Assembly (NCBI RefSeq): GCF_004365635.1
Contig: NZ_SOBH01000001.1
Location: 558,001-622,000 of the forward strand
Direction of reading: 5' to 3'
From: Litoreibacter halocynthiae
GTDB lineage: Bacteria; Pseudomonadota; Alphaproteobacteria; Rhodobacterales; Rhodobacteraceae
DNA length: 64,000 bases
Under the pieces are notes generated by a model, which was not told the DNA's origin, searched no databases, and was given only the letters and a program-made list of their open reading frames with translations. Below are positions 39,010 to 60,457 of the stretch, one piece after another (within the stretch, counting starts at the first letter, position 1; each line of letters begins with the position of its first letter). Position numbers and translations under genes: made by a program.

Positions 39010-39858
39010 TCAACAAGCCATAAACGCTCTTATCAGTAGCACGTCGCTGCGCTGTTTCAGGTGGATTAATGACTCGGACATTGTCAATTGCGGGCAATCT
39101 AACTGCAACTTTATCAGGCGCTCGTCACGTCCCAATTCTGCCTCCGATACAAAACCAATTCCCACGCCCGCTGCTACGATCTCCTGTACGGCTTCACGAC
39201 CTTCAACTTCAAAAGCAGGTTTGAGCTCGACGCGTTGGCGCAAACCTTCCTCTTCCAGCTTCTGTCGCGTTTTCGACCCCTTCTCGCGAAAAACCAGAGG
39301 GTACTGTGATAGTTCCTTAATAGTTATTTTATTAGTCGGATTTTTCAGAAGGTCTCTGGACGCAAAGGCGACGATTGGGGATGTGCCCAGGTTTGTGATC
39401 TCCATGTCCGGCCCGGGATTCAAGCTGCCGACCAAACCGATCTCGGCGTCATAGTTGCGCAATGCGGTCAATATGTCCGCAGTGTTACCGGTTTGAACCG
39501 AGACAAGCACTTTGGGATGCTTGGATCGAAAAGCTTTTAGGCGGTGGGTAAGGTGGAAGGCACTATCAGCGATAATTCGAAGAGTTCCGTCCAGCGCTGC
39601 CCGGTTTTCAGACAGTACATCGGAAATCTGTTGTTCAACTTCAAAAAACTGTTTGGTCGCAAGCAACAACCGCTCACCTGCTGGCGTTAATGTGACTTGC
39701 TTGCGATCGCGATTGAAGAGCAAGACATCGTGATCGCCTTCCAATTTCCTGACCTGCTCGGACACTGCTGGCTGGGTTAAAGACAGGGCCTCGGCAGCAC
39801 GGGAAAACCCGCCACTGATGGCGACATAGTGAAATGCCCTTATTTGGCTATATCGCAT
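39010..39858 (-). CDS. LysR-family regulator of the AEP degradation genes
   Basis: 282 residues. The helix-turn-helix reads MRYSQIRAFHYVAISGGFSRAAEAL ... QPAVSEQVRKLEG, and an effector domain follows. It is divergent from phnW across 140 bp. LysR regulators next to phnW are common in phosphate-insensitive AEP catabolic loci, where AEP itself induces the genes. Effector specificity inferred from position only. Confidence 0.92.
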   Translation of the reverse strand: MRYSQIRAFHYVAISGGFSRAAEALSLTQPAVSEQVRKLEGDHDVLLFNRDRKQVTLTPAGERLLLATKQFFEVEQQISDVLSENRAALDGTLRIIADSAFHLTHRLKAFRSKHPKVLVSVQTGNTADILTALRNYDAEIGLVGSLNPGPDMEITNLGTSPIVAFASRDLLKNPTNKITIKELSQYPLVFREKGSKTRQKLEEEGLRQRVELKPAFEVEGREAVQEIVAAGVGIGFVSEAELGRDERLIKLQLDCPQLTMSESLIHLKQRSDVLLIRAFMAC

Positions 39859-39998
39859 TGATGACCTCTTGAAGTTGAGATTTTTCTGCTACTCTCACCT
39901 ATAAGCACAACTTTTGATATCATCGCAATTAACAATTTTCCATATGGACTGGTCACCTCTAGACAAAGGGTAAGGCAAGGTTGCCCAAGGAGCTTGAA

Positions 39999-41186
39999 AT
40001 GGTTAGCGAAACTGAGACTATTGAGCCGCCAAGACTCGGAGAACCCTATCTCCTGACGCCCGGGCCACTGACAACATCTTATGCCGTGAAAGAGGCCATG
40101 CTGCGCGACTGGGGCAGTTGGGATGACGAGTTTCGCGCAATGACACGCAAGATGCGAACGCAGTTGCTCGCGCTTCTGGGTTCCGGCAAGTCCGAGTACG
40201 ATTGTGTGCCCATTCAAGGCTCAGGTTCGTATTGTGTTGAGGCAATGCTTGGATCCTTTGTGCCAAAAGACGGCAAAGTGCTGGTTTTGGCCAACGGTGC
40301 TTACGGTCTGCGCGCCGCTCAAACGATGGAGTGCCTCGGCCGTGCATTCAAACTGCTTGATAAGGGTGACTATCTACCACCACGCGGTGATGAAGTTGCG
40401 GCCATCCTCGCTGATGATTCGGCGATCACCCATGTTTTGATCATTCACTGTGAAACCAGCTCCGGGATTTTGAACCCTGTCGAGGAAATTGCAGATGTTG
40501 CTCACGCTGCCGGACGGAAAGTGTTGATTGATAGCATGTCTGCCTTCGGGGCAGTTCCCTTGGACGTAGAGCGAACCAAATATGCGGCAATGGTGTCTTC
40601 GGCCAATAAATGCATCGAAGGTGTTCCGGGTTTCGGTTTTGTGATCGCGCGAACCGATGAACTGGAGGCTGCTAAAGGTAACAGCCATTCGTTGTCGCTT
40701 GATGTTCACGCTCAATGGGCCGCGATGGAAAAAACCGGCCAATGGCGGTTTACGCCACCGACCCATGTGGTCGCAGCCTTTCTTGCGGCGCTCGACGCCC
40801 ACGAGAAAGAGGGAAGTGTGAAGGGGCGCGGGGCACGCTATACGAGAAATCGTGACGTGATGGTTGAGGGAATGCGTGAGTTGGGTTTTGAAACCCTACT
40901 TGCCGACCGCTGGCTAAGCCCGATTATTGTTACATTCTTCTGCCCTGCCAGCCCTGCGTTTGAGTTTCAGAAATTCTATGAATTGATGAAAGAACGTGGA
41001 TTTATCATCTACCCGGGAAAACTTACGGTTGTGGATAGTTTCCGCATTGGCTGTATTGGCCAAATGGACGAGCACGTCATGCGCAAGGTGGTCGAGGCCG
41101 CTGCGCAGGCCCTTGCTGAAATGGGTGTAAATGATGCCTCGCCGCCCCAAGCGGCACTTGATGAACGCAAAAAACTAGCTGCATAG
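39999..41186 (+). CDS. phnW: 2-aminoethylphosphonate:pyruvate transaminase
   Basis: 395 residues from ATG 39999 with AAGGAG ten bases before it; a TTG at 39981 in frame overlaps that ribosome binding site and is rejected. Class V aminotransferase features: YLLTPGPLTTSYAVKEAML at the N-terminus, D178 in IDSMSAFGAVP, and the PLP lysine K204 in SSANKCIEGVPGFGF, all PhnW-type. It converts AEP plus pyruvate to phosphonoacetaldehyde plus alanine, the first step of the pathway encoded by the next two genes. Confidence 0.95.
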   Translation: MVSETETIEPPRLGEPYLLTPGPLTTSYAVKEAMLRDWGSWDDEFRAMTRKMRTQLLALLGSGKSEYDCVPIQGSGSYCVEAMLGSFVPKDGKVLVLANGAYGLRAAQTMECLGRAFKLLDKGDYLPPRGDEVAAILADDSAITHVLIIHCETSSGILNPVEEIADVAHAAGRKVLIDSMSAFGAVPLDVERTKYAAMVSSANKCIEGVPGFGFVIARTDELEAAKGNSHSLSLDVHAQWAAMEKTGQWRFTPPTHVVAAFLAALDAHEKEGSVKGRGARYTRNRDVMVEGMRELGFETLLADRWLSPIIVTFFCPASPAFEFQKFYELMKERGFIIYPGKLTVVDSFRIGCIGQMDEHVMRKVVEAAAQALAEMGVNDASPPQAALDERKKLAA

Positions 41187-41203: not shown

Positions 41204-42463
41204 ATGCCAATTACAAAAACTGTCGTCGCGAATGACCGCACTTATGCAACGCCCAAAACCTGTGCCATTGCAATTTGTCTAGACGGGTGTGAACCAGAGT
41301 ATCTGGAAAAAGCCATCGCCGATGGCCTGATGCCAACGCTGAAGCGCATGCGTGAGACAGGCACTGATCGGCTTGCCCATTCTGTTATTCCATCCTTTAC
41401 CAATCCCAACAATCTGTCGATTGCAACCGGCCGTCCGCCATCTGTGCACGGAATCTGCGGCAACTATCTATACGAGCCCGAGACGGGCGAAGAAGTTATG
41501 ATGAACGATGTCCGTTTCCTGCGGGCCCCTACGATTTTCAGCAAGTTCTACGAAGCTGGTGCGCGGGTCGCCGTTGTGACTGCGAAAGACAAACTGCGCG
41601 CCCTTTTGGGGGCTGGTTTGAAGTTTGACGACGACCGGGCAAAGTGTTTCTCGGCGGAACGGTCTGACACGTCAACCAAGGCTGAACACGGCCAAGATGC
41701 CGCCAGCAAATGGTTGGGTATGGCACAACCAGAGGTTTATTCCGCCGAACTTTCCGAGTTTGTTTTCGCCGCGGGTGTGAAGCTGCTGAAAGAGTGGAAG
41801 CCGGACGTGATGTATCTGACTACCACCGACTATGTGCAGCACAAATATTCCCCCGACCAAGCAGAAGCAAAATCGTTCTACGAGATGTTTGACAAGTATC
41901 TGACAGAGCTGGACGCACTTGGCGCCGCGATTGTCGTGACTGCCGATCACGGGATGAAGCCGAAGCACGACGCGAACGGCGACCCACAGGTCATTTACGT
42001 ACAAGATTTGCTTGATCAATGGCTCGGTGAGGCCGCTGCCCGGGTGATCCTGCCGATCACCGACCCCTATGTGGTGCACCATGGTGCGCTTGGCGGTTTT
42101 GGCACAGCCTATCTGCCAGAAGGTACAGACCAAGCCGACATCATTGCCCGTTTGGCTGCCCGTCCTGAAATTCTCGAAGTGATGGACAAAGCCGAAGCAG
42201 TCCGCCGTTTCGAATTGCCCGGTGACCGCATTGGTGACATCGTGATGATCTCGACCGAGAATATGACAATCGGGACTTCTGCCCACCGCCATGACCTTGC
42301 TGCGCTGAACGAACCACTGCGCAGCCATGGTGGCCTGACAGAACAAGAGGTGCCGTTTATCTGCAACCGTGTACTCGACTTGCCGTCGGCACCTGTGTTG
42401 CGCAATTTCGACGCGTTCTTTTATGCGGCTCAAGCCGCAGCGATGGAAAAGGTAGAAGCATGA
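41204..42463 (+). CDS. phnA: Phosphonoacetate hydrolase
   Basis: 419 residues, alkaline phosphatase superfamily. Metal and nucleophile residues can be seen: D27 in [11 protein letters not shown]66 in [28 protein letters not shown] and a distal GTSAHRHDL. PhnA cleaves the C-P bond of phosphonoacetate to acetate and phosphate using two zinc ions. It lies between phnW and phnY, the standard PhnWAY order, and overlaps phnY by four bases. Length is typical. Confidence 0.95.
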
Positions 42464-43917
42464 CCACTACGGACAAAATCGACATACGCCATGAAGGCAT
42501 GCGCATCGGCGGGGAAATCGTGTTTACCGATGATGTTGTAGAGGTGAAGTATCCGTACACCGACGAAGTGATTGGCACAGTTCCGGCAGGCAAAGCTGAA
42601 CATGCTGCAAAAGCATTTGAAATTGCAGCAAATTACAAGCCTAAGCTCAGCCGTTATGAGCGTAGTCAAATCCTGCAACGCGCAGGTGAGCTGATTGGTG
42701 AGAGGCGGGAATATCTGGCCAAGTGGCTGACGCTTGAGCTTGGCATCTGCCATCAGCACGCAATTTACGAGACCAAACGCGCGCAGGACGTTTATCAATT
42801 TGCCGCCAGTCAGGCGATGAATGATGACGGCGAGATATTCTCTTGCGACCTGACCCACAATGGCAAAGAGCGCAAGATTTACACCACCCGCGAGCCGGTG
42901 AAGGCGATCAGTGCGATCACTCCGTTCAACCACCCGCTTAATATGGTGAGCCATAAGATTGCGCCGTCCATTGCAACCAATAACTGCATGGTCTGCAAAC
43001 CCACCGAACTGACGCCACTGACAGCGATTGCGCTTGCGGATATTCTCTATGAGGCAGGTTTGCCTCCAGAGATGTTCCAGATCGTCACGGGGATGCCGCA
43101 GGACATTGGCGACGAGATGATCACCAATGAAAACATTGATATCATCACCTTCACCGGCGGCGTGCCAGTTGGCAAAATTATCGCAAGCAAAGCCGGCTAT
43201 AAACGCCAAGCGCTAGAACTGGGCGGTAATGACCCTTTGATTGTTTGCAACGACCTGACCGACGCCGACCTTGAGAAAGCCGCGACAATCGCGGTGGCTG
43301 GCGCGACTGGAAACTCTGGCCAGCGGTGCACAGCGATCAAGCGTATTCTTGTGCAGGAATCTGTTGCGGAAAAATTTGTTCCCATGGTGCTGGCGAAAGC
43401 CAAGAAGATCAAGTTTGGCGACCCGCAGGATCCTGAAACGGAACTGGGTTGCGTCATCCATGCGCAGGCCGCGGAACTTTTTGAAAATCGTGTTTATATG
43501 GCCGAGAAGCAGGGAGCCAAAATCCTGTACCACCCCGAGCGTCGAGGTGCACTCTTGCCTCCGATTGTTGTGGACCACGTCCCCCACGATAGCGAGTTGG
43601 TGATGGAGGAGACTTTCGGCCCGATCATCCCTATCGTTCGGGTGCCGGATAATGACGAAGAAGTCATGGCGATCTCCAACTCGACCGATTTCGGGCTTTC
43701 CTCAGGTGTTTGCACGAACGACCTGAACCGCGCGATTGCCTATATCAACGGTCTGGACGTCGGGACTTGCAACATTTGGGAACAACCGGGCTACCGCATC
43801 GAAATGTCCCCGTTTGGCGGCATCAAGGACAGTGGCAACGGTGTGAAGGAGGGCGTGATTGAAGCGATGAAATTCTTCACAAACGTCAAGACATACTCCC
43901 TGCCTTGGCCGGGCTAG
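42460..43917 (+). CDS. phnY: Phosphonoacetaldehyde dehydrogenase
   Basis: 485 residues, aldehyde dehydrogenase fold. General base E254 is in [12 protein letters not shown] and the catalytic C290 in [12 protein letters not shown]; the cofactor loop is FTGGVPVGK. PhnY oxidises phosphonoacetaldehyde to phosphonoacetate with NAD+, giving PhnA its substrate. Starts in the phnA stop codon (ATGA overlap). Followed by an intrinsic terminator-like hairpin, so full transcription of the next gene may be reduced. Confidence 0.95.
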
Positions 43918-43977: not shown

Positions 43978-45333
43978 ATGCCCGCGACGATCCACACAGA
44001 AGGCGAGCCAAACACATCAGCAGCCCGCAAGGGTTGGTCATCGAAAGAAACCGATGCCGCGGCCATTGGCTTGTTGCAACGTGACGCCGACGCGTTTCTT
44101 CATCAGAGTCTATCCAGCCCTTGCGTCTCCACGATCGCAAAGGCGGAAGGCATCTGGATCGAAGATGTGGCCGGGCGACGCTTCATGGATTTCCATGGCA
44201 ATTCAGTTCATCATATCGGCTACGGTCACCCTCGTTTGGTTGCCGCGATCAAGGATCAGCTGGACCAGCTTTCCTTCTCTCCACGGCGCTTTACCAATGA
44301 CGTCTCCGTCGCGCTGGCCGAACGGCTGGAGAAGATCACGCCGGGAAATCTGGGCAAAACGCTATTTACCACCGGTGGATCTGACGCGAATGAAGTTGCT
44401 CTGCGTTTGGCACGGGCCGCAACAGGACGATTCAAAACGCTGAGCTTTTGGGATTCCTTTCATGGCGCGGGGTTTGGTGCAGCGTCGGTCGGTGGCGAGG
44501 CCACTTTCCGCAGCCATATTGCCGGCCCATTGCTTCCGGGTGCCGAACACGTCGCACCATTCCATTGCTATCACTGCGCCTACGGTCATTCGGGGCCGGA
44601 AAACTGCGGGTTGGCCTGCGCCAAGATGGTCGACTACGTCCTGCAACGCGAAGGGGATGTGGCCGCTGTCATAGCCGAGCCGATGCGCGCGGTTCCTGTG
44701 GTGCCTCCGGCGGGATATTGGAAATCAGTTCAAGAGGCCTGCCACCGTCACGGCACATTGCTGATCATGGATGAAATTCCGACGGGCCTTGGCAAAACAG
44801 GCGAGATGTTTGCGTTTCAGCATGACGACTTTATTCCTGATATTGTCACGCTTGGAAAAGCGCTTGGCGGGGGCATTTTGCCGATAGCCGCAGTCGTGGC
44901 GCGACGTGATCTGGATGTGGCGGGTGACTTTGCGATCGGCCACTACACTCACGAGAAAAACCCCGTGACGGCACGGGCCGCCTTAACGACACTGGATATC
45001 ATCGAGGACGAAGGGCTCGTCGAATGTGCCGCCACGCTTGGCACCCACGCACAAGATCGTTTGCGTGAAGCCTTGGGCGCCCATCCCAATGTCGGTGATA
45101 TCAGGGGACGAGGCTTGATGTTTGGCATCGAGATCGTATCAGACAAAGACACCCGCACGCCGGCGCCTGAACTGGCTGAACAGATCTATTATTCCTGCCT
45201 GTCGAACGGTCTGAGTTTCAAGATCAGCGCGGGAAACGTGCTAACGCTTTCACCGCCGTTGACGATTTCCCGCAATGATTTGGACGAGGCGCTCAGCATT
45301 GTCGAAAATGCGGTGCAGGGTTGCAAACCTTGA
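43978..45333 (+). CDS. pbfA: (R)-1-hydroxy-2-aminoethylphosphonate ammonia-lyase candidate (class III PLP enzyme)
   Basis: 451 residues with the class III aminotransferase fold: TTGGSDANEVALRLARAATG, D265 in LLIMDEIPTGLGKTGEMF, and the PLP lysine K294 in TLGKALGGGILPIAA. PbfA enzymes belong to this fold and convert hydroxylated AEP to phosphonoacetaldehyde and ammonia; they are recognised chiefly by sitting beside phnW with phnX or phnAY, exactly as here. A generic transaminase is the alternative. AGGA precedes the ATG. Confidence 0.8.
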   Translation: MPATIHTEGEPNTSAARKGWSSKETDAAAIGLLQRDADAFLHQSLSSPCVSTIAKAEGIWIEDVAGRRFMDFHGNSVHHIGYGHPRLVAAIKDQLDQLSFSPRRFTNDVSVALAERLEKITPGNLGKTLFTTGGSDANEVALRLARAATGRFKTLSFWDSFHGAGFGAASVGGEATFRSHIAGPLLPGAEHVAPFHCYHCAYGHSGPENCGLACAKMVDYVLQREGDVAAVIAEPMRAVPVVPPAGYWKSVQEACHRHGTLLIMDEIPTGLGKTGEMFAFQHDDFIPDIVTLGKALGGGILPIAAVVARRDLDVAGDFAIGHYTHEKNPVTARAALTTLDIIEDEGLVECAATLGTHAQDRLREALGAHPNVGDIRGRGLMFGIEIVSDKDTRTPAPELAEQIYYSCLSNGLSFKISAGNVLTLSPPLTISRNDLDEALSIVENAVQGCKP

Positions 45334-46172
45334 GCCTGAGCATCTTCCTCATTGTCATCTTCGCTGCGTTTCTCCACGCATTATGGAATGCCATCGTAAA
45401 GGGCGCAGGTGACAGGACGATCGTGCTGGGCCTTGTCGCTGCGGGGCATGTTATCCCGGGATTTGCGCTTTTGGCGTTTAGCGCAGCCCCATCCTCGGCC
45501 GCGATTCCATATATTGTTGCCTCGACGGTCATTCACTGGGGGTATTACGCGCTGTTGAGCATCGCGTACCGGACCGGAGATTTGAGCATCGTTTATCCTA
45601 TCGCGCGTGGCCTTTCTCCCGTGTTGATTGCCGTTGGCGCATTGATTTGGGTGGGCGAAGAGCTGCCTTTGGTTGTTTGGCTGGGTGTTCTCGCGGTCTC
45701 TGCAGGCATCCTGCTTTTGGCGCGAGGTGTTTTCACGTCTGGCATTTCCCGTGCCGGGCTGGTCGCATCCGTCGGTGTCGCCGTTGTTATTGCAAGCTAT
45801 TCCATCGTGGATGGAGTTGGAGTCCGCGTCTCGGGCAGTCCGACGGGCTACATCGGTTGGTTATTCGTGTCCGAACTCTTCGTCGTGGTATTCGTTTTCA
45901 CAAGCCGATGGGAGAGACTTCAGAATATGTCTGGCCGCGCCATTGCGATTGGTCTTTTTGGCGGGGTCGTTTCTGGGGCGGCTTACGGGCTGGTTCTATA
46001 CGCAAAAACGCAAGCCCCGTTGGGTGTCGTTTCAGCTTTGCGTGAAACATCCGTAATCTTTGCTGCGCTGATGGGCGTGTTTTGGTTCTCCGAAGGCCCC
46101 CGTCGCGATCGTTTGCTCGCTGCTCTAATCGTGGGCCTGGGCATCGCGACAATCGCTGGGGTGAATGTCTAA
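45321..46172 (+). CDS. EamA/DMT-family transporter in the AEP locus
   Basis: 283 residues with ten hydrophobic segments in two repeats (LHALWNAIVKGAGDRT near the N-terminus; SALRETSVIFAALMGVFWFSEGP in the second half). It starts at TTG 45321 or 45330, overlapping the pbfA stop, so it is co-translated with pbfA. The family moves many small molecules. Inside this locus it may export alanine or another product, or import a phosphonate; nothing in the sequence decides. Confidence 0.85.
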   Translation: MQTLSLSIFLIVIFAAFLHALWNAIVKGAGDRTIVLGLVAAGHVIPGFALLAFSAAPSSAAIPYIVASTVIHWGYYALLSIAYRTGDLSIVYPIARGLSPVLIAVGALIWVGEELPLVVWLGVLAVSAGILLLARGVFTSGISRAGLVASVGVAVVIASYSIVDGVGVRVSGSPTGYIGWLFVSELFVVVFVFTSRWERLQNMSGRAIAIGLFGGVVSGAAYGLVLYAKTQAPLGVVSALRETSVIFAALMGVFWFSEGPRRDRLLAALIVGLGIATIAGVNV

Positions 46173-46174
46173 CA

Positions 46175-47857
46175 ATGATCATTATCTCATTCATTGTTGA
46201 GTTGATGGGCGCCACAATGCTGCTGCTGTTTGCGGTACGCATGGTGAGGACCGGTATTGAGCGCGCCTTTGGGTCGTCTTTCAAGCGTGTCGTCACCGAG
46301 AACCGCAACCGTGTGAGCGCCGGTGCAACGGGCCTTGTGCTTGCCATTATCTTGCAAAGCTCCGCTGCGGTGGCGTTGTTGGTCGCCGGATTTTCCGCGA
46401 CCGGCGCGATTTCGTTCGGTGTCGGCTTGTCCGTCGTGTTGGGGGCAGACCTTGGATCAGCACTTTTGATTCAGGTGTTCTCTTTCGATCTGGCGTGGTT
46501 GGTCCCAGTTCTACTGGCGGTCGGCGGCGGTCTTTTTGTCAAGTCAGAGCAACGCAAGCTTCGCCAAGCGGGCCGAATAATACTTGGCATTGCCTTCATT
46601 CTGATTTCGCTCCGGTACCTTCGAGAAACGATGGACCCCATTCGCGACAGCACTTTCTTGCCAGTAATTGCAGACTATCTTGCGACGGATTTCCTGACGG
46701 CATTTATCGTCGGGGCCTTATTGGCTTTCTTGATGCATTCGAGTGTAGCGGTCATCTTGATGTGTGTGACGCTGGTCTCGATTGGCGCGATCCCGGTTGC
46801 TGCTGGCGTGTCTTTGGTGCTTGGTGCCAATCTGGGCAGCGCTATCATTCCTGTGTGGCTCAGTCGGGGAATGAAAAACGCGGCAAGGCGGGTTCCAGTG
46901 GCGAATTTGGCGGTGCGCGGGAGCGGTGCCCTGATTGCCCTGTATGTGATCAACAAGTTTGGCCTTTTGCAATATTTCGGATCTGAGACCTCCGCACAGA
47001 CGTTAATCAACACACACATATTGTTTAACGCGCTTCTGTTGATGGTATTGATCTTTGCGCACAGGCTGGAACGCCCTTTTTTGAAATTTCTGCCTGACGA
47101 CCTTCCTACCGCAGAAGAACAATCTCCGCTCTATAAAACGACGCTTGACGAAGCCGTTCTGGACAAGCCGCATCTGGCGATCACGAACCTCAAGCGTGAA
47201 GTGTTGCGCATGATCCAATTGGTCGAGACCATGGTGACTCCGGTTATGGATATCTACACAAAGTATGATCCTGACCGGGCCCGCATGGTTCTATCGCAAG
47301 ATACTTTCGTGAACACGGCATTGGACGATGTTCGGCGCTATGCAGCGACGCTGCAAAACACGGGCCTTTCCAAGCAGGAAAATAAACGGGTTCGCGAAAT
47401 CACCGAATATGCGATTGCTGTGGAAACTGCGGGGGACATCGTGGCAAAACGCATGATCCCCCTCGCGAAAGAGATGTACGAAAAGGGCATCCGGTTTTCC
47501 CAAGACGGGGCCTCAGAAATTACAAATATGCATGAGCGGACCAAAGCGAACTTGCTGCTGGCCTCTAACCTTCTCGTTTCCGATGATCTTGAAAGTGCGC
47601 GCTTGCTGTTGGAGGAAAAACAGGAAATGGCGCGGCTGGAGCGTAAAAGTCGCAAGCGCCATTTGAAGCGTCTGAGCGAAGGGGTCCAGATCAGTTTCGA
47701 CTCCAGCGACATTCATCTTGAAACCGTCGGCGCGTTGCGTGACTTTAACAGCCACATAGCCTCGGCTGCTTATCCGCTCCTTCACAGGGGCGGCCAGCTG
47801 CTTGAAACACGCCTGATTGAGCAGGACTATGATGACCTTGACGTGCGTCAGCGTTAG
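46175..47857 (+). CDS. Na/Pi cotransporter family protein (PNaS), possible phosphate exporter
   Basis: 560 residues. Two inverted repeats each carry the family's QSS-type motif: ILQSSAAVALLVAGFSATG and LMHSSVAVILMCVTLVS. A C-terminal PhoU-like helical domain (about residues 330-550) follows. True start is ATG 46175, two bases after the EamA gene. When AEP serves as carbon or nitrogen source, phosphate is released in excess; a Na/Pi protein of this type is a sensible outlet. Export direction is inference. Confidence 0.87.
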   Translation: MIIISFIVELMGATMLLLFAVRMVRTGIERAFGSSFKRVVTENRNRVSAGATGLVLAIILQSSAAVALLVAGFSATGAISFGVGLSVVLGADLGSALLIQVFSFDLAWLVPVLLAVGGGLFVKSEQRKLRQAGRIILGIAFILISLRYLRETMDPIRDSTFLPVIADYLATDFLTAFIVGALLAFLMHSSVAVILMCVTLVSIGAIPVAAGVSLVLGANLGSAIIPVWLSRGMKNAARRVPVANLAVRGSGALIALYVINKFGLLQYFGSETSAQTLINTHILFNALLLMVLIFAHRLERPFLKFLPDDLPTAEEQSPLYKTTLDEAVLDKPHLAITNLKREVLRMIQLVETMVTPVMDIYTKYDPDRARMVLSQDTFVNTALDDVRRYAATLQNTGLSKQENKRVREITEYAIAVETAGDIVAKRMIPLAKEMYEKGIRFSQDGASEITNMHERTKANLLLASNLLVSDDLESARLLLEEKQEMARLERKSRKRHLKRLSEGVQISFDSSDIHLETVGALRDFNSHIASAAYPLLHRGGQLLETRLIEQDYDDLDVRQR

Positions 47858-47903: not shown

Positions 47904-48665
47904 ATGTTGGCGACAGAGCGACACGCGATTATTCTTGAGCGGCTTGACCAAAAGCCGACGGTCTCTATCCGGGCACTGACAGAACAGCTTGGCGTGTCGC
48001 GTGAAACGGTTCGCAAAGACATCGAGCTTCTGGCCCAACATAAAAAGCTTGAAAAGATACGCGGCGGCGCGACCAAGATCCGCACCAGCGAACTGCCCAT
48101 AACCCGCAGGTCCAAGCTGAATATTCAGGGCAAGTCCCTGATCGCCCAGTTTCTAGCGTCGCAAATTCCAAACGGAGCTTCGCTATTCTTGGACAACGGG
48201 TCGTCCGTACTCGCCCTGGCCAAAGCCCTGACACATCATAGCGGCCTGATCGTCTATACCAATGATCTTAAAGTTGCTGAGGTGATCGCCCAAGCAACAG
48301 CCGAGCTGGTGATCATTGGTGGCAAAGTCGATGTGACCGAAATGGCCGTACAGGGTGTTGAGGCGCTGGAAAGCGTCGCGCGATACCGCGCAGATTTTGC
48401 CATCGTGAGCGCGGGTGGCCTTAGCCCGTCAGCGTTTTTGACCGACTTCAGCCGCGAGGCGTCCAGCATGCGCCACCTGATGCTGTCCCAATCACAACAT
48501 CCGATTATGGTGGCCGATAGCCAAAAATTTGGTGTCGTCGGGCATGTAGTATTTCAAGCACCTCCGAAGTCGACACGTATCGTGACGGATATTGCGCCAG
48601 ATGATGATATCCGGCGCGCGATATCGCAACGAGGATATCGGCTTGATATCGCTTCCGAGGCGTAG
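47904..48665 (+). CDS. DeoR/GlpR-family transcriptional regulator
   Basis: 253 residues. The DeoR helix-turn-helix is at residues 7-55 (ERHAIILERLDQKP ... GVSRETVRKDIELL), followed by the sugar-phosphate-isomerase-like sensor domain (LFLDNGSSVLALAKAL, VTEMAVQGVEALESVARYR). Family members usually repress and respond to phosphorylated metabolites, so a phosphonate or phosphorylated intermediate would be a natural effector. It lies between the phosphate transporter and the demethylase-like flavoprotein, with a palindrome just after it. Confidence 0.92.
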   Translation: MLATERHAIILERLDQKPTVSIRALTEQLGVSRETVRKDIELLAQHKKLEKIRGGATKIRTSELPITRRSKLNIQGKSLIAQFLASQIPNGASLFLDNGSSVLALAKALTHHSGLIVYTNDLKVAEVIAQATAELVIIGGKVDVTEMAVQGVEALESVARYRADFAIVSAGGLSPSAFLTDFSREASSMRHLMLSQSQHPIMVADSQKFGVVGHVVFQAPPKSTRIVTDIAPDDDIRRAISQRGYRLDIASEA

Positions 48666-48701
48666 ATTTAGTTTGCCAAGTTTTGCAAAGTAACGCAATC
48701 T

Positions 48702-48722
48702 AATGCAAAGCGAATTTGCATT
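48702..48722. promoter_or_regulatory. Perfect palindrome between deoR and the flavoprotein gene, candidate DeoR operator
   Basis: AATGCAAA (48702-48709) and TTTGCATT (48715-48722) form an 8-bp perfect inverted repeat with spacer GCGAA. A related TTTTGCAAAG lies at about 48680-48690. The palindrome ends one base before the GGAGAG ribosome binding site of the next gene, so a bound repressor, or an RNA stem, could block its expression. Confidence 0.5.
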
Positions 48723-48733
48723 GGAGAGTTGGC

Positions 48734-51196
48734 ATGGCCAAAACTGAACTTCCCGAAAGAGCGCAATATGTAATCGTGGGCGGCGGCATCGTCGGGTGCT
48801 CTGTTGCTTATCATCTTGCAAAAATGGGCCATAACGATGTGGTGCTGCTTGAACAGGGGCAGTTGAGTTGCGGAACCACATGGCATGCCGCCGGATTGGT
48901 CGGCCAACTGCGCAGCCAACCTGCCATGACGAATCTGATCCGCTATTCGACACAACTCTACGCCGACCTTGAGGCAGAGACAGGGCTTGCAACGGGTTGG
49001 ATGCAATGCGGGTCAGTCACGGTAGCGCGTTCCGAAGATCGCATGACGATGTTGATGCGCACGGCGGCAGCGGCCCGCGCGCAAGGTGTTGATGTTGACG
49101 TTCTCACTCCGCAGCAAGCACAAGAAAAGTGGCCGGTCATGCAGGTGGATGACCTCAAAGGTGGCATATGGATGCCCGGTGATGGCAAGGCCAACCCCAC
49201 CGATTTGACCCAATCCCTTGCCAAAGGTGCCAGAATGCGCGGCGCAAAGGTGATTGAGGGGATCAAAGTCACGGATATTCTGACGAAGGAGGGCAGGGTA
49301 ACCGGCGTCGAGACAGATCAGGGTCGGATCGAGGCTGAAATTGTGGTGAATTGTGCGGGCCAATGGGCACGCCGCCTTGGCCTGATGTGCGGTGTAAACG
49401 TGCCCCTTCATTCGGCAGAACACATGTATATCGTGACCGAAACAATGAAAGGCGTGAATCCCGACCTTCCGGTTTTGCGCGATCCCGATGGCTTCGTTTA
49501 CTTCAAAGAAGAGACCGGCGGGCTGGTCATGGGCGGGTTTGAACCAGAGGCGAAGCCCTGGGGTATGGATGGTATTCCTGACAAATTTGAATTCTCGTTG
49601 TTGCCGGATGATTGGGACCAGTTCGAAATTTTGCTCGAAAATGCCCTGATCCGGGTTCCGGAAATGGAAACCACAGGCGTGCGGAAATTCTACAATGGCC
49701 CCGAAAGCTTTACCCCTGACAATAACTACCTGCTTGGCGAAGCGCCTGAACTGAAGAACTTCTTCGTCGGAGCCGGCTTCAACTCGATGGGGATCGCGAG
49801 TGCCGGCGGGGCAGGCCGCGCCCTTGCCGAGTGGATCGTGCAAGGAGAGCCCACATCGGACCTCTTTGCCGTCGACATTCGCCGCTTTGCTGATTTCAAC
49901 AATAACCCGACCTGGCTTCATGACCGCGTCAAAGAAACGCTGGGATTGCACTATGCGATGCCATGGCCCAATCGCGAGTTGGACACTGCACGGCCCTTCC
50001 GCCGTTCCGCACTTTATGATCGGCTAGCTGCGAAGAATGCAGTGTTCGGATCCAAGATGGGTTGGGAGCGGGCAAACTGGTTCGCGCCGGAGGGCACCGC
50101 GGCTGAAACCAATTACAGCTTCGGTCGCCAGAATTGGCATGACGCAGTGGCCGCAGAACACAAGGCGACGCGCGAAGATGTTGCCGTGTTTGACCAAAGC
50201 TCTTTTGCCAAACTGCTTGTTCAAGGGCGGGATGCTTGCGCGGAACTCAACAGAATTTGCGCGGCCAACATTGACGTGGCTATCGGCGGCACAGTTTACA
50301 CGGGCCTTTTGAATGCACGGGGCGGGTATGAGAGCGACCTGACTGTTTTGCGGCTAAAAGAGCAGGAGTTCTTGTTGATTACCGGATCGGCGCAGGCCGT
50401 CCGAGATGCTAACTGGATCGAAAAGAACTTCTCGGCAGATGCCCATGTTTTTCTGACTGACGTGACGGCGGCTTGGTCCGTCTTGGCCGTCATGGGGCCT
50501 AAATCACGCCAAGTCCTTCAAAAACTCACCAAGGCCAACCTGTCCAACGCTGCATTCCCGTTTGGCACTGTTCAGAAGATTGACTTGGGCTACGCCACCG
50601 TCTGGGCCAACCGCATGACATATGTTGGCGAGCTTGGATGGGAGTTGATTGTTCCGGTTGAGTTCACTGTCGGGGTCTACGAAGACTTGAAGCGGGCAGG
50701 GCAGGATCATGGCATTGTTGACGCTGGGTATTACGCGCTTGATGGCTTGCGCCTTGAAAAGGGCTTCCGCGCTTGGAGCCGTGAGTTGACGCCCGACATA
50801 ACGCCTTTGCAAGCCGGACTCAGCTTTGCTGTCGATTTCGAAAAGCCTGGTGGTTTCATCGGAAGGGAGGCACTTGTTGCCGCGAAGGCAGATCCCGATC
50901 ACCTTAACAAGCGGATCATTCAGCTGGTCGTCAAGGATGAAGAAGTTCAACTTTGGGGCGGTGAAGCGGTCCTGTGCGATGGCGTGGAGATAGGTGAGGT
51001 GCGCTCCGCCGGATACGGGCACACGCTGGGAGCGGCCGTCGCGCTATGCGAGATCAATGCGGCCGAACCGGTGAAGGCGGAATTTATCAAGAGCCATTCA
51101 TTTGAAGTTGATGTGGCGGGGAAACGGTGTGCCGCTACGGCTCATCTTCGTACGCCTTACGATCCGAAATCAGAACGAGTCCGCGCGGAGGGCTAA
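48734..51196 (+). CDS. Dimethylglycine/sarcosine dehydrogenase-like flavoprotein with folate-binding GcvT domain
   Basis: 820 residues from ATG 48734 (GGAGAG upstream). The N-terminal DAO domain has the FAD motif GGGIVGCS (residues 16-23) and CGTTWHAAGLVG with H51, the histidine that carries covalent FAD in dimethylglycine and sarcosine dehydrogenases. From about residue 440 onward it is GcvT/folate-binding (GLLNARGGYESDLTVLR; YVGELGWELIVP; ALDGLRLEKGFRAW). Such enzymes remove N-methyl groups and pass the one-carbon unit to tetrahydrofolate. In an AEP locus an N-methylated phosphonate is a candidate substrate; sarcosine from the creatinase operon is another. Confidence 0.88.
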   Translation: MAKTELPERAQYVIVGGGIVGCSVAYHLAKMGHNDVVLLEQGQLSCGTTWHAAGLVGQLRSQPAMTNLIRYSTQLYADLEAETGLATGWMQCGSVTVARSEDRMTMLMRTAAAARAQGVDVDVLTPQQAQEKWPVMQVDDLKGGIWMPGDGKANPTDLTQSLAKGARMRGAKVIEGIKVTDILTKEGRVTGVETDQGRIEAEIVVNCAGQWARRLGLMCGVNVPLHSAEHMYIVTETMKGVNPDLPVLRDPDGFVYFKEETGGLVMGGFEPEAKPWGMDGIPDKFEFSLLPDDWDQFEILLENALIRVPEMETTGVRKFYNGPESFTPDNNYLLGEAPELKNFFVGAGFNSMGIASAGGAGRALAEWIVQGEPTSDLFAVDIRRFADFNNNPTWLHDRVKETLGLHYAMPWPNRELDTARPFRRSALYDRLAAKNAVFGSKMGWERANWFAPEGTAAETNYSFGRQNWHDAVAAEHKATREDVAVFDQSSFAKLLVQGRDACAELNRICAANIDVAIGGTVYTGLLNARGGYESDLTVLRLKEQEFLLITGSAQAVRDANWIEKNFSADAHVFLTDVTAAWSVLAVMGPKSRQVLQKLTKANLSNAAFPFGTVQKIDLGYATVWANRMTYVGELGWELIVPVEFTVGVYEDLKRAGQDHGIVDAGYYALDGLRLEKGFRAWSRELTPDITPLQAGLSFAVDFEKPGGFIGREALVAAKADPDHLNKRIIQLVVKDEEVQLWGGEAVLCDGVEIGEVRSAGYGHTLGAAVALCEINAAEPVKAEFIKSHSFEVDVAGKRCAATAHLRTPYDPKSERVRAEG

Positions 51197-51450: not shown

Positions 51451-52470
51451 ATGACTATACTGAAAAAAACTATGACAAGCGTCGCTGCTCTTGCGATCAG
51501 CGCCACTGCCGCTTTCGCCGAGGCGGAATTGACGGTTTACACAGCGATCGAGGCCGAAGATCTGGCCCGCTACGCGGAGACGTTCAACGCGAGCCATCCG
51601 GACATCAAGATCAATTGGGTCCGCGATTCAACCGGCGTTATCACCGCAAAACTGCTGGCGGAACGGGATAACCCACAGGCCGATGTTGTCTGGGGGCTGG
51701 CTGCAACATCGCTGCTGCTGCTCAAATCCGAAGGGATGCTGGAAGCATATGCGCCTGCTGGCGTCGAAAAGCTTGATCCGAAATTCGTCGACAAGGATGA
51801 AACTCCTGCGTGGGTCGGCATGGACGCGTGGGTCGCATCTGTCTGCTATAACACCGTGGAAGCAGAGAAACTTGGCTTGACCCCGCCAACGTCGTGGAAA
51901 GACCTTACGGACGCCCAATACAAGGGCCACGTGATCATGCCCAACCCTGCATCGTCAGGCACAGGTTTTCTTGACGTGTCCAGCTGGTTGCAGATTTTCG
52001 GTGAAGATGATGGCTGGGCCTTCATGGACGGACTTCACGAGAACATTGCGCGGTATACGCATTCTGGTTCAGCACCCTGTAAACTTGCCGCTTCGGGTGA
52101 AATTCCCATCGGTGTTTCCTTCGCATTCCGCGGAGCAAAATCCAAAGCTGCTGGGGCGCCCCTAGAAATCATCGTACCTTCAGAAGGTGTGGGCTGGGAT
52201 ATGGAAGCCACTGCCATCGTGGCTGGTACCGACGATCTGGAAGCCGCGCAGAAGTTGGTTGACTTCACGATCACGAAAGAAGCCAACGAAATGTACAATG
52301 TCGGTTACGCGGTTGTGGCGTATCCGGGCATCGCCAAACCGGTTGAGCATTTCCCAACAAACCTGTTGGACGCCATGATCGACAACGATTTCGAGTTCGC
52401 AGCGAACAATCGGGCTGCAATCTTGAAGGAATGGGCAAGCCGCTATGATGGCAAGTCTGATCCTAAGTAA
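51451..52470 (+). CDS. phnS: 2-aminoethylphosphonate ABC transporter substrate-binding protein
   Basis: 339 residues with a signal peptide (TSVAALAISATAAFAEA). The mature start LTVYTAIEAEDLARYAETF, WVRDSTGVITAKLLAE and DVVWGLAATSLLLLK match the PhnS2-type AEP receptor, related to Fe(III)-binding proteins (extracellular family 1). It binds AEP in the periplasm for the PhnT/PhnU importer encoded next. Located right behind the AEP catabolic genes, which supports the substrate. A hairpin follows the stop. Confidence 0.87.
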   Translation: MTILKKTMTSVAALAISATAAFAEAELTVYTAIEAEDLARYAETFNASHPDIKINWVRDSTGVITAKLLAERDNPQADVVWGLAATSLLLLKSEGMLEAYAPAGVEKLDPKFVDKDETPAWVGMDAWVASVCYNTVEAEKLGLTPPTSWKDLTDAQYKGHVIMPNPASSGTGFLDVSSWLQIFGEDDGWAFMDGLHENIARYTHSGSAPCKLAASGEIPIGVSFAFRGAKSKAAGAPLEIIVPSEGVGWDMEATAIVAGTDDLEAAQKLVDFTITKEANEMYNVGYAVVAYPGIAKPVEHFPTNLLDAMIDNDFEFAANNRAAILKEWASRYDGKSDPK

Positions 52471-52485
52471 GCGATCTTAACTAAT

Positions 52486-52511
52486 GAAGGGTGCCAGAGA
52501 AGGCGCCCTTC
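52486..52511 (+). promoter_or_regulatory. Hairpin between phnS and phnT
   Basis: GAAGGGTGCC (52486-52495) pairs with GGCGCCCTTC (52502-52511) over 10 bp with one T-G pair, loop AGAGAA. No U-run. Same position relative to the receptor gene as the hairpins after the other three receptor genes of the window. Confidence 0.6.
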
Positions 52512-52597
52512 GCTCCCATAAGCTTCAACTTCCCCCTTTCCAGACGACAGGTTCCTTTCGCGGAATTTGTTTAGCTCAGCAAAAAGGATCTTTGCCC

Positions 52598-53725
52598 GTG
52601 CCTTTTGACGGATCAGAACCCTATCTCAAAATTGAAAACCTCTGGAAAGCTTTCGGAAAATTCCTCGCACTCAAGGACGTCTCGCTTGAGATCCATGAAG
52701 GTGAGTTGATTTGCTTCTTGGGGCCATCGGGCTGCGGCAAGACAACATTGCTGCGTGCTATCGCGGGACTGGACCTGCAGACCAAAGGCAGTGTGCATCA
52801 AGGCGGCAAGGATGTCTCAAACCTCCCGCCCTCTGAACGTGATTTCGGGATTGTATTTCAATCCTATGCGCTGTTCCCGAACCTGACGATTGAAAAGAAT
52901 GTGGCGTTCGGACTTGAGAATACCGGGCGATCAAAGGTCGAGATAACTGATCGCGTATCCGAGCTTCTCGCGATGGTAGGGCTTGCCGACCAAAGCAAAA
53001 AATATCCGGCGCAATTGTCCGGCGGGCAACAACAGCGGATTGCTTTGGCGCGCGCAATCGCGACCAACCCCGGACTGCTGCTGCTTGATGAGCCGCTTTC
53101 AGCGCTTGATGCAAAGGTACGCGTCTATCTGCGCCACGAGATCAAGGAACTGCAACGCAAACTCGGTGTGACGACAGTTATGGTGACACATGATCAGGAA
53201 GAGGCCCTTGCGATGGCCGACCGTATCGTGGTCATGAAAGATGGTGTGATAGAGCAGGTTGGGACACCGACCGAAATTTATAGCACCCCCAAAACACTGT
53301 TCGTGGCCGATTTTATCGGTGAAATGAACCAGATTCCGGCGACGGCGGGTCCAAGTGGTGCCGTTAGCTTTGGCAATGGAACGATGAAGTCCCTGTCACA
53401 TAACTTCCCTGAGGGTCACCCGATTATCGCAGCTATTCGCCCTGAAGACGTTATTCCTCACGGAGATGAGGCGCATGTACTCGGGTCTGACGACGTGGTC
53501 GAAACCGAGGAGAACGCCCTTGAAGTCGTTGTGAGCGAGATGGAATTCCTCGGATCGTTCTGGCGCTGCCGGTTACAACACAAGCGTTTCGGCGAGAGTG
53601 AGTTAATCGCAGATTTCTCGATCAACGCCGTGCGCAGGCTTAGCCTCGCCGAGGGCGGAACGATGACTGTGGAACTTCCAAAGAACCGTTTGATGGCTTT
53701 TGAGCGACCGGAGGCGGTGGAATGA
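52598..53725 (+). CDS. phnT: 2-aminoethylphosphonate ABC transporter ATP-binding protein
   Basis: 375 residues from GTG 52598, which has AAAAAGGA at the right distance; a longer frame from 52484 would run through the hairpin. Walker A is GPSGCGKTTL (residues 42-51), the ABC signature LSGGQQQRIALARAIA, and Walker B LLLLDEPLSALDA. A C-terminal TOBE-type regulatory extension follows. It powers the PhnS/PhnU importer. Four-base overlap with the permease gene. Confidence 0.88.
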   Translation: MPFDGSEPYLKIENLWKAFGKFLALKDVSLEIHEGELICFLGPSGCGKTTLLRAIAGLDLQTKGSVHQGGKDVSNLPPSERDFGIVFQSYALFPNLTIEKNVAFGLENTGRSKVEITDRVSELLAMVGLADQSKKYPAQLSGGQQQRIALARAIATNPGLLLLDEPLSALDAKVRVYLRHEIKELQRKLGVTTVMVTHDQEEALAMADRIVVMKDGVIEQVGTPTEIYSTPKTLFVADFIGEMNQIPATAGPSGAVSFGNGTMKSLSHNFPEGHPIIAAIRPEDVIPHGDEAHVLGSDDVVETEENALEVVVSEMEFLGSFWRCRLQHKRFGESELIADFSINAVRRLSLAEGGTMTVELPKNRLMAFERPEAVE

Positions 53726-55737
53726 CCGACGCGACCCAGCACAACCTTCCCCCCGGCCCAATCATCAAGGGGAAGCTCTCTCGCGATGACATCATCATGC
53801 GCGGCAGCATGGTCGTAATCGGCTTGTACCTGCTAATAACGATGGTGTTCCCCCTTTATGCAATGTTGTCGAAATCCTTTTCGACGTTTCAATTCGACCT
53901 GTCCTCTTACGAGGTTCAGGTCAGTGACGAAACCGGGACCACATTTTCGAACCCGATCTCCTTGAACGACCTCAATGAGCAGCTGAAGGTTTTGGAAGAC
54001 AGCGACATGATCGCAGGGTCTGACGGTCGACTTGGGGTGACCCAGTTCTTTCCTGACTTCAGCTTCCGGAGCCCCGTCAAATACCGCATCCGCAACACCA
54101 CCGATGAAGGCCGGTTTCTGGTCGGGTCCACGCTGACTGACAGTACTGATTGGGTCGAATTGGACAGCAATACCTTTCGACGCGTCCAGCTTCGGCCCGT
54201 CAAATCCATCGGGTTCGGAAACTTTCAATCCTACTTCGACACACCTGCGCTTTCAAATTCGATCAAGAACTCGGTTCTGATCGCCACCATCAGCACAATT
54301 GTCACAGTGACGCTTGCGTTCTGGTTTGCATTCGCTTTGAGCAGATCCTGCATGCGCTTCAAGGGGTTATTTCGGCTGATAGCGATGGCCCCGATCCTGG
54401 TGCCGTCGTTGTTGCCGGGCATCGCGCTGGTGTATCTGTTTGGCAACCAAGGCATGCTGAAGGAACTTCTGTTCGGGGCCAGCATCTACGGCCCGATTGG
54501 CATCGTCATCGGATCAGTGTTCTTCACCTTCCCACATGCGTTTCTGATTATATCGACGGCCTTGGCGATCTCGGACGGACGGCTTTACGAAGCTGCGACC
54601 TCGCTGCGTGCGACGCCGTGGCGGACCTTCTGGACTGTGACTATTCCCGGCGCGCGGTATGGTTTGGTCTCGGCGGCATTCGTGGTTTTCAACCTTGTCA
54701 TTACCGACTTCGGCCTGCCCAAAGTCATTGGCGGACAGTTCAATGTGTTGGCGGTGGATATCTACAAACAGGTTATCGGTCAGCAGAATTTTGAGATGGG
54801 CGCCGTGGTGTCGGTGGTCCTAGTTCTGCCCGCGATCCTTGCGTTTGCAATTGACCGCTTTGTCCAAAGCAAGCAGGTCGCGCTGCTTTCGGCCCGGTCG
54901 GTTCCTTATCAGCCAAAACCAAACAAAAAGGCCGATTGGATTCTGTTCAGCTATGCGAGCCTCATTGGCATTTTCATCATTGGGATGCTTGCTGTTTGCC
55001 AGTTCGCCGCGTTGGTAAAGTTTTGGCCGTATGACCTGAGCTTTAGCCTGAATAACTACCAATTCGACCGCATGGACGGCGGTGGTTGGGGGGCGTATTA
55101 CAACTCGATCAAACTGGGACTACTTACCGCGATTGTCGGTACTGCGATAATCTTTTTCGGGGCGTACCTCGTCGAGAAATCCAATGGGTTTAGGACCGGC
55201 CGCGCGATTTTTCAGATGTTTGCAATGCTGCCTATGGCCATTCCCGGGATGGTTCTGGGGCTTGCCTACATTTTCTTCTTCAACAATCCCGCCAATCCGC
55301 TGCACGCGATCTACGGGACGATGGCGATCCTTGTCGTGTGCACGGTGACCCACTTTTATACTGTGTCGCATCTTACGGCGACGACGGCGCTCCAGCAGAT
55401 GGATCGGGAGTTTGAATCGGTTTCAGCTTCGCTCAAGCAGCCGACGCTTAAGCTATTTGGTCGGGTAACTGTTCCTGTCTGCCTGCCGTCAATTCTTGAT
55501 ATTTCCATCTACTTGTTTGTAAACGCGATGACGACGGTTTCTGCTGTTGTGTTTCTTTACTCACCGACAACGTCTCTCGCATCAATTGCGGTTCTGAACA
55601 TGGACGACGCCGGTGATATTGCTCCGGCCGCGGCGATGGGGATGATGATTTTCTATACGAATGCTGGCGCGCGGATATTTCACTTAATTGCCTCGCGCGG
55701 AATTCTTAGCCGCACTCAGGCTTGGCGAAATCGATAG
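53722..55737 (+). CDS. phnU: 2-aminoethylphosphonate ABC transporter fused permease
   Basis: 671 residues containing both permease halves in one chain (about 12 membrane helices). Each half has its EAA loop: LYEAATSLRATPWRTFWTVTIPG in the first and FESVSASLKQPTLKLFGRVTVP in the second. This matches the PhnU2-type fused AEP permease, but a hydrophilic insert of about 110 residues sits between helix 1 and helix 2 (roughly residues 50-165), lengthening the usual ~570-residue protein. Last gene of the AEP locus. Confidence 0.87.
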   Translation: MTDATQHNLPPGPIIKGKLSRDDIIMRGSMVVIGLYLLITMVFPLYAMLSKSFSTFQFDLSSYEVQVSDETGTTFSNPISLNDLNEQLKVLEDSDMIAGSDGRLGVTQFFPDFSFRSPVKYRIRNTTDEGRFLVGSTLTDSTDWVELDSNTFRRVQLRPVKSIGFGNFQSYFDTPALSNSIKNSVLIATISTIVTVTLAFWFAFALSRSCMRFKGLFRLIAMAPILVPSLLPGIALVYLFGNQGMLKELLFGASIYGPIGIVIGSVFFTFPHAFLIISTALAISDGRLYEAATSLRATPWRTFWTVTIPGARYGLVSAAFVVFNLVITDFGLPKVIGGQFNVLAVDIYKQVIGQQNFEMGAVVSVVLVLPAILAFAIDRFVQSKQVALLSARSVPYQPKPNKKADWILFSYASLIGIFIIGMLAVCQFAALVKFWPYDLSFSLNNYQFDRMDGGGWGAYYNSIKLGLLTAIVGTAIIFFGAYLVEKSNGFRTGRAIFQMFAMLPMAIPGMVLGLAYIFFFNNPANPLHAIYGTMAILVVCTVTHFYTVSHLTATTALQQMDREFESVSASLKQPTLKLFGRVTVPVCLPSILDISIYLFVNAMTTVSAVVFLYSPTTSLASIAVLNMDDAGDIAPAAAMGMMIFYTNAGARIFHLIASRGILSRTQAWRNR

Positions 55738-58036: not shown

Positions 58037-58046
58037 AAATGCTCTC

Positions 58047-58072: not shown

Positions 58073-58172
58073 GGAATTCCGGTTGTGTTCTGGACCTTGA
58101 GCAGACAGGATTGCCGAAATTCGACAAACTCGCGTGTCGTGCGTGAGACGTCATTTGGGGGAAATGGTCTCG

Positions 58173-60447: not shown

Positions 60448-60457
60448 AATGATTGTT

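What the first reader, a model, noticed from the sequence alone, without database searches (positions are those of the whole stretch)
47904..51196. Folate-linked demethylase embedded in a phosphonate locus: possible N-methyl-AEP pathway
Seen: an 820-residue protein with the covalent-FAD histidine motif (TWHAAGL) and a GcvT domain, under an adjacent DeoR gene and flanked by phosphonate genes. Known: dimethylglycine and sarcosine dehydrogenases remove N-methyl groups to THF; PhnW cannot use N-methyl-AEP, and other FAD enzymes (unlike this one, without a folate domain) are known to oxidise it directly. Inference: this enzyme would strip methyls from mono-, di- or trimethyl-AEP to feed PhnW while saving one-carbon units, an undescribed route as far as I know.
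Basis: partly seen in the sequence, partly recalled or inferred. Interest (0 to 1): 0.75.

Follow-up and report, generated by a model that had tools for sequence, protein, structure and literature searches.

The report
Folate-linked demethylase in aminophosphonate gene clusters
A marine bacterium carries, inside its genes for using the natural phosphonate 2-aminoethylphosphonate, a dimethylglycine-dehydrogenase-like enzyme that recurs in this setting in many relatives and probably strips a methyl group from methylated aminophosphonates while saving the carbon; the activity is inferred, not tested.

Summary
In detail: 48734-51196 encodes an 820-aa FAD/GcvT protein of the dimethylglycine dehydrogenase kind behind a DeoR gene, inside a phnW-phnA-phnY-pbfA / AepXVW cluster. 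The link is not accidental: 72 of 80 related loci carry phosphonate genes in the flank, in at least seven arrangements; none shows the creatinase found downstream here; and phnA is in 16 of 20 class genomes with the enzyme against 33 of 367 without. DeoR is beside it in 72 of 80; direct repeats lie upstream. The covalent-FAD histidine and GcvT aspartate are invariant; formyl-THF deformylase follows it in 2 of 99 loci. Best reading: it demethylates N-methyl-AEP to AEP for PhnW plus methylene-THF, unlike the known PbfC/D enzymes, which give phosphonoacetaldehyde and methylamine. A 2025 table seems to label such genes 'pbfC', but the Azospirillum B510 protein at the PbfC position lacks the folate domain and the histidine. 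Substrate and chemistry are untested. Against: only 8 of 20 survey members are closely linked, and one genome lacks PhnW. Trimethyl-AEP is unlikely for this enzyme alone.

The parts
48734..51196 (+). 820-aa FAD + GcvT protein, dimethylglycine-dehydrogenase-like; proposed N-methyl-AEP demethylase
48767..49834 (+). FAD (DAO, PF01266) domain, residues 12-367; His51 of TWHAAGL at 48884-48886, invariant
50012..50827 (+). GCV_T folate-binding domain, residues 427-698; Asp535 (codon 50336-50338) invariant
50909..51163 (+). GCV_T_C barrel, residues 726-810
48672..48711 (+). putative DeoR operator: four about 10-bp direct repeats (TTTGCCAAGT / TTTGCAAAGT / AACGCAATCT / AATGCAAAGC)
47904..48665 (+). DeoR/GlpR-family regulator, adjacent partner gene
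39010..39858 (-). LysR regulator, best match phn_lysR TIGR03339 (286 bits, below the 341 cut-off)
39981..41186 (+). phnW, AEP-pyruvate transaminase
41204..42463 (+). phnA, phosphonoacetate hydrolase
42460..43917 (+). phnY, phosphonoacetaldehyde dehydrogenase
43978..45333 (+). [quoted passage not shown]
45321..46172 (+). EamA-like membrane protein (phn_DUF6 TIGR03340, 146 bits, below cut-off)
46172..47857 (+). Na/Pi-cotransporter-like protein (AepP-like)
51451..52470 (+). aepX, 2-AEP ABC transporter binding protein (phnS2)
52484..53725 (+). aepV, 2-AEP ABC transporter ATPase (phnT2)
53722..55737 (+). aepW, 2-AEP ABC transporter permease (phnU2)

Best explanation
The enzyme oxidises the N-CH3 side of N-methyl-2-aminoethylphosphonate (M1AEP), possibly also N,N-dimethyl-AEP, in its FAD domain. 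The iminium product passes to the GcvT domain, where tetrahydrofolate takes the one-carbon unit as methylene-THF and AEP is released. AEP then goes to PhnW, PhnY and PhnA (phosphonoacetaldehyde, phosphonoacetate, acetate + phosphate). DeoR binds the direct repeats just upstream and switches this gene separately from the core, next to which a LysR gene lies. Shown by sequence: anatomy, invariant residues, conserved linkage, phnW nearly always alongside, linked DeoR, repeats. Inferred: substrate, side of oxidation, THF use, DeoR binding and its ligand.
For: 72 of 80 related loci have phosphonate genes in the flank, in seven or more arrangements. In 387 class genomes phnA is in 16 of 20 with the enzyme against 33 of 367 without; Fisher p = 1.3e-12, genomes not independent. 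At 58% identity or more 9 of 9 have phnA. phnW is in 56 of 58 loci with phnA, the other two cut at the edge, as a product AEP would require. His51, His230, Asp535, Tyr630 and Glu675 are invariant in 89 of 89 rows. PurU lies beside the gene in L092 and two genes on in L099, like folD/purU with MABO, the demethylating enzyme of the nicotine pathway (PMC6214936, passages). A SoxB gene above cut-off and a SoxA stretch lie elsewhere in the genome, so sarcosine need not depend on it. Around the 9 other full-length paralogues of this genome (about 20-kb stretches) there was no phnW, phnA, pbfA, aepX or aepW hit, only weak generic ones such as ABC ATPases.
Against: No activity data. Linkage cannot tell demethylation from deamination. 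G166 has the enzyme and phnA but no PhnW at E <= 1e-60 (its contig ends 76 bp after the phnA match). Of 10 class genomes checked for PhnW, 8 are over cut-off, G205 shows a piece at a contig edge, G166 none. In the class survey only 8 of the 20 have phosphonate genes in the stretch fetched. Two unlinked ones at 61-62% (G397, G270): beside G397's copy lie a glutamine-synthetase-like and an aldehyde dehydrogenase gene, though both genomes have phnA and phnW. 8 of 80 loci show no phosphonate genes in the flank. PurU is in only 2 of 99 loci and the own-genome FolD candidate found no match in any.
Confidence: 0.6

Rival explanations
1. It acts on M1AEP but deaminates like PbfC: oxidation on the ethyl side gives phosphonoacetaldehyde + methylamine, and the GcvT domain is idle. 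This is what a 'pbfC' label would imply.
For: PMC12366243 Table 1 lists pbfC in M. ciceri and R. euryhalinum; in the genomes searched the only nearby PF01266 gene is this one. The FAD domain is 31% identical to the protein at the PbfC position of B510.
Against: The B510 protein has no GcvT part and Arg where the covalent His would be, and the characterised PbfC has non-covalent FAD (PMC10590968, passage). The window FAD domain scores far better against DMGDH (256 bits) than the B510 protein does (98 bits). GcvT residues are invariant, and phnW is kept in 56 of 58 loci with phnA.
Confidence: 0.15
2. It is an ordinary dimethylglycine/sarcosine dehydrogenase (for glycine betaine, or for creatine via the downstream creatinase) that happens to lie here.
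For: Closest solved relatives are DMGDH. A creatinase gene lies at 56834-58036. GbdR-like regulators or a GbcA-like Rieske gene lie in some related loci.
Against: Creatinase at 45% identity or more in 0 of 80 loci, within the flank held. Phosphonate genes in 72 of 80 despite rearrangement. SoxB and a SoxA stretch and nine other full-length paralogues are elsewhere in the genome.
Confidence: 0.12
3. The substrate is another methylated aminophosphonate, for example N-methyl-(R)-1-hydroxy-AEP, whose demethylated product feeds PbfA rather than PhnW.
For: pbfA is in the window and in 31 of 80 loci; a sister-clade member (G012) lies directly behind a PbfA above cut-off.
Against: 49 of 80 loci show no pbfA in the flank, while phnW is seen in 60 of 80.
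Confidence: 0.1

Closest known systems
Mitochondrial dimethylglycine dehydrogenase and Arthrobacter dimethylglycine oxidase
   Same: FAD domain with the covalent-type His motif, GcvT part, full-length homology
   Different: gene context is aminophosphonate catabolism; Phe269 (89 of 89 rows) where the DMGDH alignment has Tyr
MABO, demethylating 4-methylaminobutyrate oxidase of P. nicotinovorans (PMC6214936, passages)
   Same: same kind of proposed job: an N-methyl omega-amino acid to the free amine + methylene-THF; purU (and folD there) nearby
   Different: carboxylate substrate, nicotine pathway; its sequence was not compared here
PbfC, N-methyl-AEP dehydrogenase (Azospirillum B510; PMC10590968, sections and passages)
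   Same: FAD enzyme in an AEP cluster; proposed same substrate
   Different: the B510 protein has no GcvT domain and no covalent His; products PAA + methylamine (paper)
PbfD / TIGR03364
   Same: FAD enzyme in AEP clusters acting on M1AEP (paper)
   Different: the window protein scores 81 bits against a cut-off of 285; model of 365 positions, FAD part only
TmpA/TmpB trimethyl-AEP route (seen only as mentioned in PMC10590968 and PMC10574752)
   Same: handles an N-methylated AEP
   Different: iron oxygenases, yields trimethylglycine; no such gene was named among the 18 window ORFs scanned

Membership tests
DMGDH/SarDH/DMGO/MABO kind (FAD + GcvT demethylases) | DAO + FAO_M + GCV_T + GCV_T_C in this order | tested here: met
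DMGDH/SarDH/DMGO/MABO kind (FAD + GcvT demethylases) | His of the covalent-FAD motif | tested here: met
   His51 in 89 of 89 rows; the covalent bond itself is not testable
DMGDH/SarDH/DMGO/MABO kind (FAD + GcvT demethylases) | acidic residue at the GcvT catalytic position (role recalled from DMGO/T-protein) | tested here: met
   Asp535 in 89 of 89 rows
DMGDH/SarDH/DMGO/MABO kind (FAD + GcvT demethylases) | passes the methyl carbon to THF | not testable with these tools
   needs an assay
PbfC (N-methyl-AEP dehydrogenase) | lies in an AEP degradation cluster | tested here: met
PbfC (N-methyl-AEP dehydrogenase) | single FAD domain without folate domain, as in the B510 protein | tested here: not met
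PbfC (N-methyl-AEP dehydrogenase) | no His at the covalent-FAD site | tested here: not met
   window TWHAAGL aligns with TARAAAL of B510
PbfC (N-methyl-AEP dehydrogenase) | products PAA + methylamine | not testable with these tools
   needs an assay
PbfD / TIGR03364 | score over the curated cut-off | tested here: not met
   81 bits, cut-off 285
TMAO demethylase NF053776 | score over the curated cut-off | tested here: not met
   165 bits, cut-off 1100
Creatine/sarcosine pathway enzyme | conserved linkage to creatinase | tested here: not met
   0 of 80 loci at 45% identity or more, within the flank held

The most novel reading that the evidence does not exclude
In Aminobacter, Shinella and Ensifer (7 of 80 loci) the same locus also holds a second, 42-44% identical FAD/GcvT paralogue and a GbcA-like Rieske oxygenase (350-364 bits, below the 670 cut-off; read directly in L038, L040, L067, L088, by coordinates in L041, L057, L077); 5 of these 7 genomes have a better-scoring GbcA-type gene elsewhere. 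Together these would strip trimethyl-AEP stepwise to dimethyl-, monomethyl- and free AEP, an aminophosphonate copy of the glycine betaine pathway, with the window enzyme as the last, folate-linked step.
Probability: 0.2. Interest if true: 0.75.

Novelty: new variant of a known kind. Interest (0 to 1): 0.6.

Why it matters
If true, N-methyl-AEP, which PMC10590968 (section 16) calls frequent in nature and sometimes nearly as abundant as AEP, would have a second route: demethylation that keeps the nitrogen for PhnW and gives the methyl carbon to folate, instead of releasing methylamine. It would tie phosphonate use to one-carbon metabolism in marine roseobacters and rhizobia, including the laboratory strain Sinorhizobium meliloti 1021, and would correct a likely mislabelling of such genes as pbfC.

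Tried and rejected
Creatinase partner: considered because of the gene at 56834-58036; rejected since 0 of 80 loci show it within the flank held (some flanks, e.g. L022's, are cut short).

Identity with PbfC: taken seriously after PMC12366243 Table 1. B510's phnW region was fetched; the only ORF in these 40 kb that my FAD-domain profile found (E <= 1e-3) has no GcvT part (pbfA follows at once) and no His, so identity was rejected. Its start is unsure (about 415 aa from a likely start, at most 485). The record carries no annotation, so that this ORF is WP_012976454 is inferred from its place between phnW and pbfA. That the Table 1 'pbfC' entries are these genes is inferred, not from accessions; supplements were not available.

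Specificity residues: 46 columns are at least 95% conserved in the 89 rows and shared by at most 1 of 16 paralogue rows, e.g. Lys152, Gln210, Phe269; no structure with substrate, so no claim. Structure prediction was not run.

Papers: searches (aminoethylphosphonate or phosphonate with dimethylglycine dehydrogenase, aminomethyltransferase, sarcosine + tetrahydrofolate, N-methyl-AEP names, PbfC, S. meliloti locus tags). In the listings and the passages I opened I saw no report of a folate-linked enzyme for N-methyl-AEP; several listed papers were not opened (e.g. PMC11203657, PMC11945143, PMC12478193, PMC5082522) and the library is open-licence PMC only. PMC10132767, PMC8154272, PMC8316502 and PMC10574752 were seen as passages only. 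PMC3121374 (S. meliloti phnWAY) is not held.

The repeat statistic uses mononucleotide shuffles and a score chosen after seeing the repeats; treat it as descriptive.
Full report
What is there. The window holds a complete 2-aminoethylphosphonate (AEP) cluster: LysR (39010-39858, minus), phnW, phnA, phnY, pbfA, an EamA-like protein, a Na/Pi-cotransporter-like protein, DeoR (47904-48665), the FAD/GcvT enzyme (48734-51196), then aepX, aepV, aepW (to 55737). Names rest on NCBIfam and Pfam scans. The enzyme has DAO, FAO_M, GCV_T and GCV_T_C domains, and near full-length homology to solved mitochondrial dimethylglycine dehydrogenases. This genome has 10 full-length matches to it, itself included; the next nearest is 50% identical.

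Is the phosphonate setting meaningful? A protein search found 222 relatives and kept the best 80 loci, 65-97% identical, chosen by similarity to the enzyme only. Phosphonate genes (phnW, phnA, phnY, pbfA, aepX or aepW) lie in the flank (up to 10 kb each side) in 72 of 80: phnW in 60, phnA in 58, phnY in 55, aepX in 47, aepW in 42, pbfA in 31; DeoR in 72. The 8 without are L025, L028, L034, L075, L078, L081, L085, L087; of these L028 and L087 are under 7 kb and L025 and L085 under 15 kb long. Of the 22 loci without phnA in the flank I checked 11 genomes: 7 of 11 have PhnA above cut-off elsewhere, one (L085) has a 35-residue piece at a contig end, the other 3 none above cut-off. Nearest phosphonate neighbours differ between lineages: 12 patterns apart from 'none', some differing only by where the locus is cut. 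Examples: AepP and AepX on the two sides in Litoreibacter, LysR downstream in Mesorhizobium, AepW upstream in Shinella, PhnY and AepX in L091/L098. Linkage kept through rearrangement argues for a shared function. The creatinase downstream of the window cluster is in 0 of 80 loci at 45% identity or more.

Controls. In 387 class genomes the enzyme (E <= 1e-290) is in 20 and phnA in 49; both in 16 (Fisher p = 1.3e-12, not corrected for kinship). At 58% identity or more, 9 of 9 have phnA; at 53-57%, 7 of 11. Close linkage is weaker here: in the stretches fetched, 8 of the 20 show phosphonate genes (the window, G047, G246, G313, G374, G166, G330, and G012 by a PbfA above cut-off); G205's copy, on a 16-kb contig, has DeoR beside it. 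Nine of the ten members at 53-56% (all but G241) form a separate clade with the own-genome paralogue L003 (quick tree with long-branch warnings); G012 is among them. The function should not be extended to that clade without more evidence. Around the 9 other full-length paralogues of the window's genome there was no phnW, phnA, pbfA, aepX or aepW hit, only generic ones (ABC ATPase up to 47%, aldehyde dehydrogenase, DeoR, LysR around 25-30%).

How it may work. In 89 of 89 rows at 61% identity or more (the window gene counted twice, identical rows dropped) His51, His230, Phe269, Asp535, Tyr630 and Glu675 are invariant; that Asp535 is the GcvT catalytic position is recalled, not computed. In the nicotine pathway MABO demethylates N-methyl-aminobutyrate to GABA + methylene-THF, in one operon with folD and purU, while MAO deaminates the same compound to methylamine (PMC6214936, passages); that MABO is itself a GcvT-type protein is recalled. 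The same split would fit here. PbfC and PbfD deaminate M1AEP to PAA and methylamine (PMC10590968; sections 8, 16, 17, 18, 53 and passages); the window enzyme would demethylate it. Two signs favour demethylation. phnW is present in 56 of 58 loci with phnA, the other two being cut at the edge, and PhnW is what an AEP product needs. PurU, above its cut-off, follows the gene directly in L092 and two genes on in L099, 2 of 99 loci; an own-genome FolD candidate found no match in the 99. Against: G166 has phnA but no PhnW was found, and of 10 class genomes 8 have PhnW above cut-off. The unlinked G397 copy sits by a glutamine-synthetase-like and an aldehyde dehydrogenase gene.

Regulation. DeoR lies 70-255 bp upstream in 67 loci (5 of them on the other strand) and about 0.9 kb upstream in 5. 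The direct repeats at 48672-48711 were found nowhere else in the window with two patterns. A lag-10/11 repeat score in the stretch 20-120 bp upstream of the enzyme is unusual (p <= 0.05) in 52 of 80 loci, against 2 of 80 for the stretch 320-420 bp upstream; for the window none of 1000 shuffles reached it. DeoR sensors usually bind phosphorylated small molecules (recalled), so a phosphonate ligand is plausible.

Against known enzymes. The PbfF paper (PMC12366243, section 6 and passages) lists pbfC for M. ciceri and R. euryhalinum. In the genomes of L063 (M. ciceri WSM1271) and L100 (R. euryhalinum DSM 4868) the nearest other PF01266 gene (E <= 1e-25) is about 28 kb and 48 kb from the window enzyme's orthologue. 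Yet the FAD protein between phnW and pbfA in Azospirillum B510, source of the characterised PbfC, is a single-domain protein without the His. I conclude that a homology label has probably covered two different architectures. This is inference: accessions and supplements could not be checked.

Verdict. It is a new variant of a known kind: a known chemistry and a known family, in a pathway where, in the papers seen, only the deaminating alternative has been shown.

Noticed in passing
window 56834-62940: Creatinase gene (PDB best matches creatine amidinohydrolases) followed by a PotABCD-like ABC transporter; likely a creatine uptake and hydrolysis unit, not seen in the 80 related loci within the flank held.
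   Followed up: partly
L038, L040, L041, L057, L067, L077, L088: GbcA-like Rieske oxygenase and a second FAD/GcvT paralogue (42-44% identical) in the same locus; 5 of 7 genomes have a better-scoring GbcA-type gene elsewhere.
   Followed up: partly
L069:7893-8930 (cluster of 11 loci), L023:3622-4629 (cluster of 4 loci): GbdR-like (GlxA/AraC) regulators near the enzyme in rhizobia and in Ruegeria/Shimia; one representative of each cluster scanned, both below the GbdR cut-off.
   Followed up: no
L027:16958-18373, L034:7522-9063 and L023, L029, L032: PehA-like sulfatase-superfamily hydrolase near the enzyme (two of five scanned, below cut-off); might free (methyl-)AEP from phosphonate monoesters.
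   Followed up: no
L092:10965-11798, L099:13524-14393: Formyltetrahydrofolate deformylase (PurU, above cut-off) downstream of the enzyme.
   Followed up: yes
L134:10592-11251: RibD_C-domain gene (annotated 'dihydrofolate reductase family') between DeoR and the enzyme in Aminobacter niigataensis.
   Followed up: no
13 loci, e.g. L047:19214-20224; also L120:7834-8763: D-2-hydroxyacid-dehydrogenase-like genes; the first group is likely pbfF (HAEP racemase) by its place beside pbfA; L120's lies next to a survey member of the enzyme family.
   Followed up: no
L112, L113 (G397, G270): Enzyme at 61-62% identity without phosphonate genes close by; beside L112's copy lie a glutamine-synthetase-like and an aldehyde dehydrogenase gene. 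Perhaps a different N-methyl amine.
   Followed up: partly
L079: Record titled Bacillus subtilis SK6B4 groups with Pseudochrobactrum in the enzyme tree and has the same gene order as L080; probably mislabelled or contaminated.
   Followed up: no
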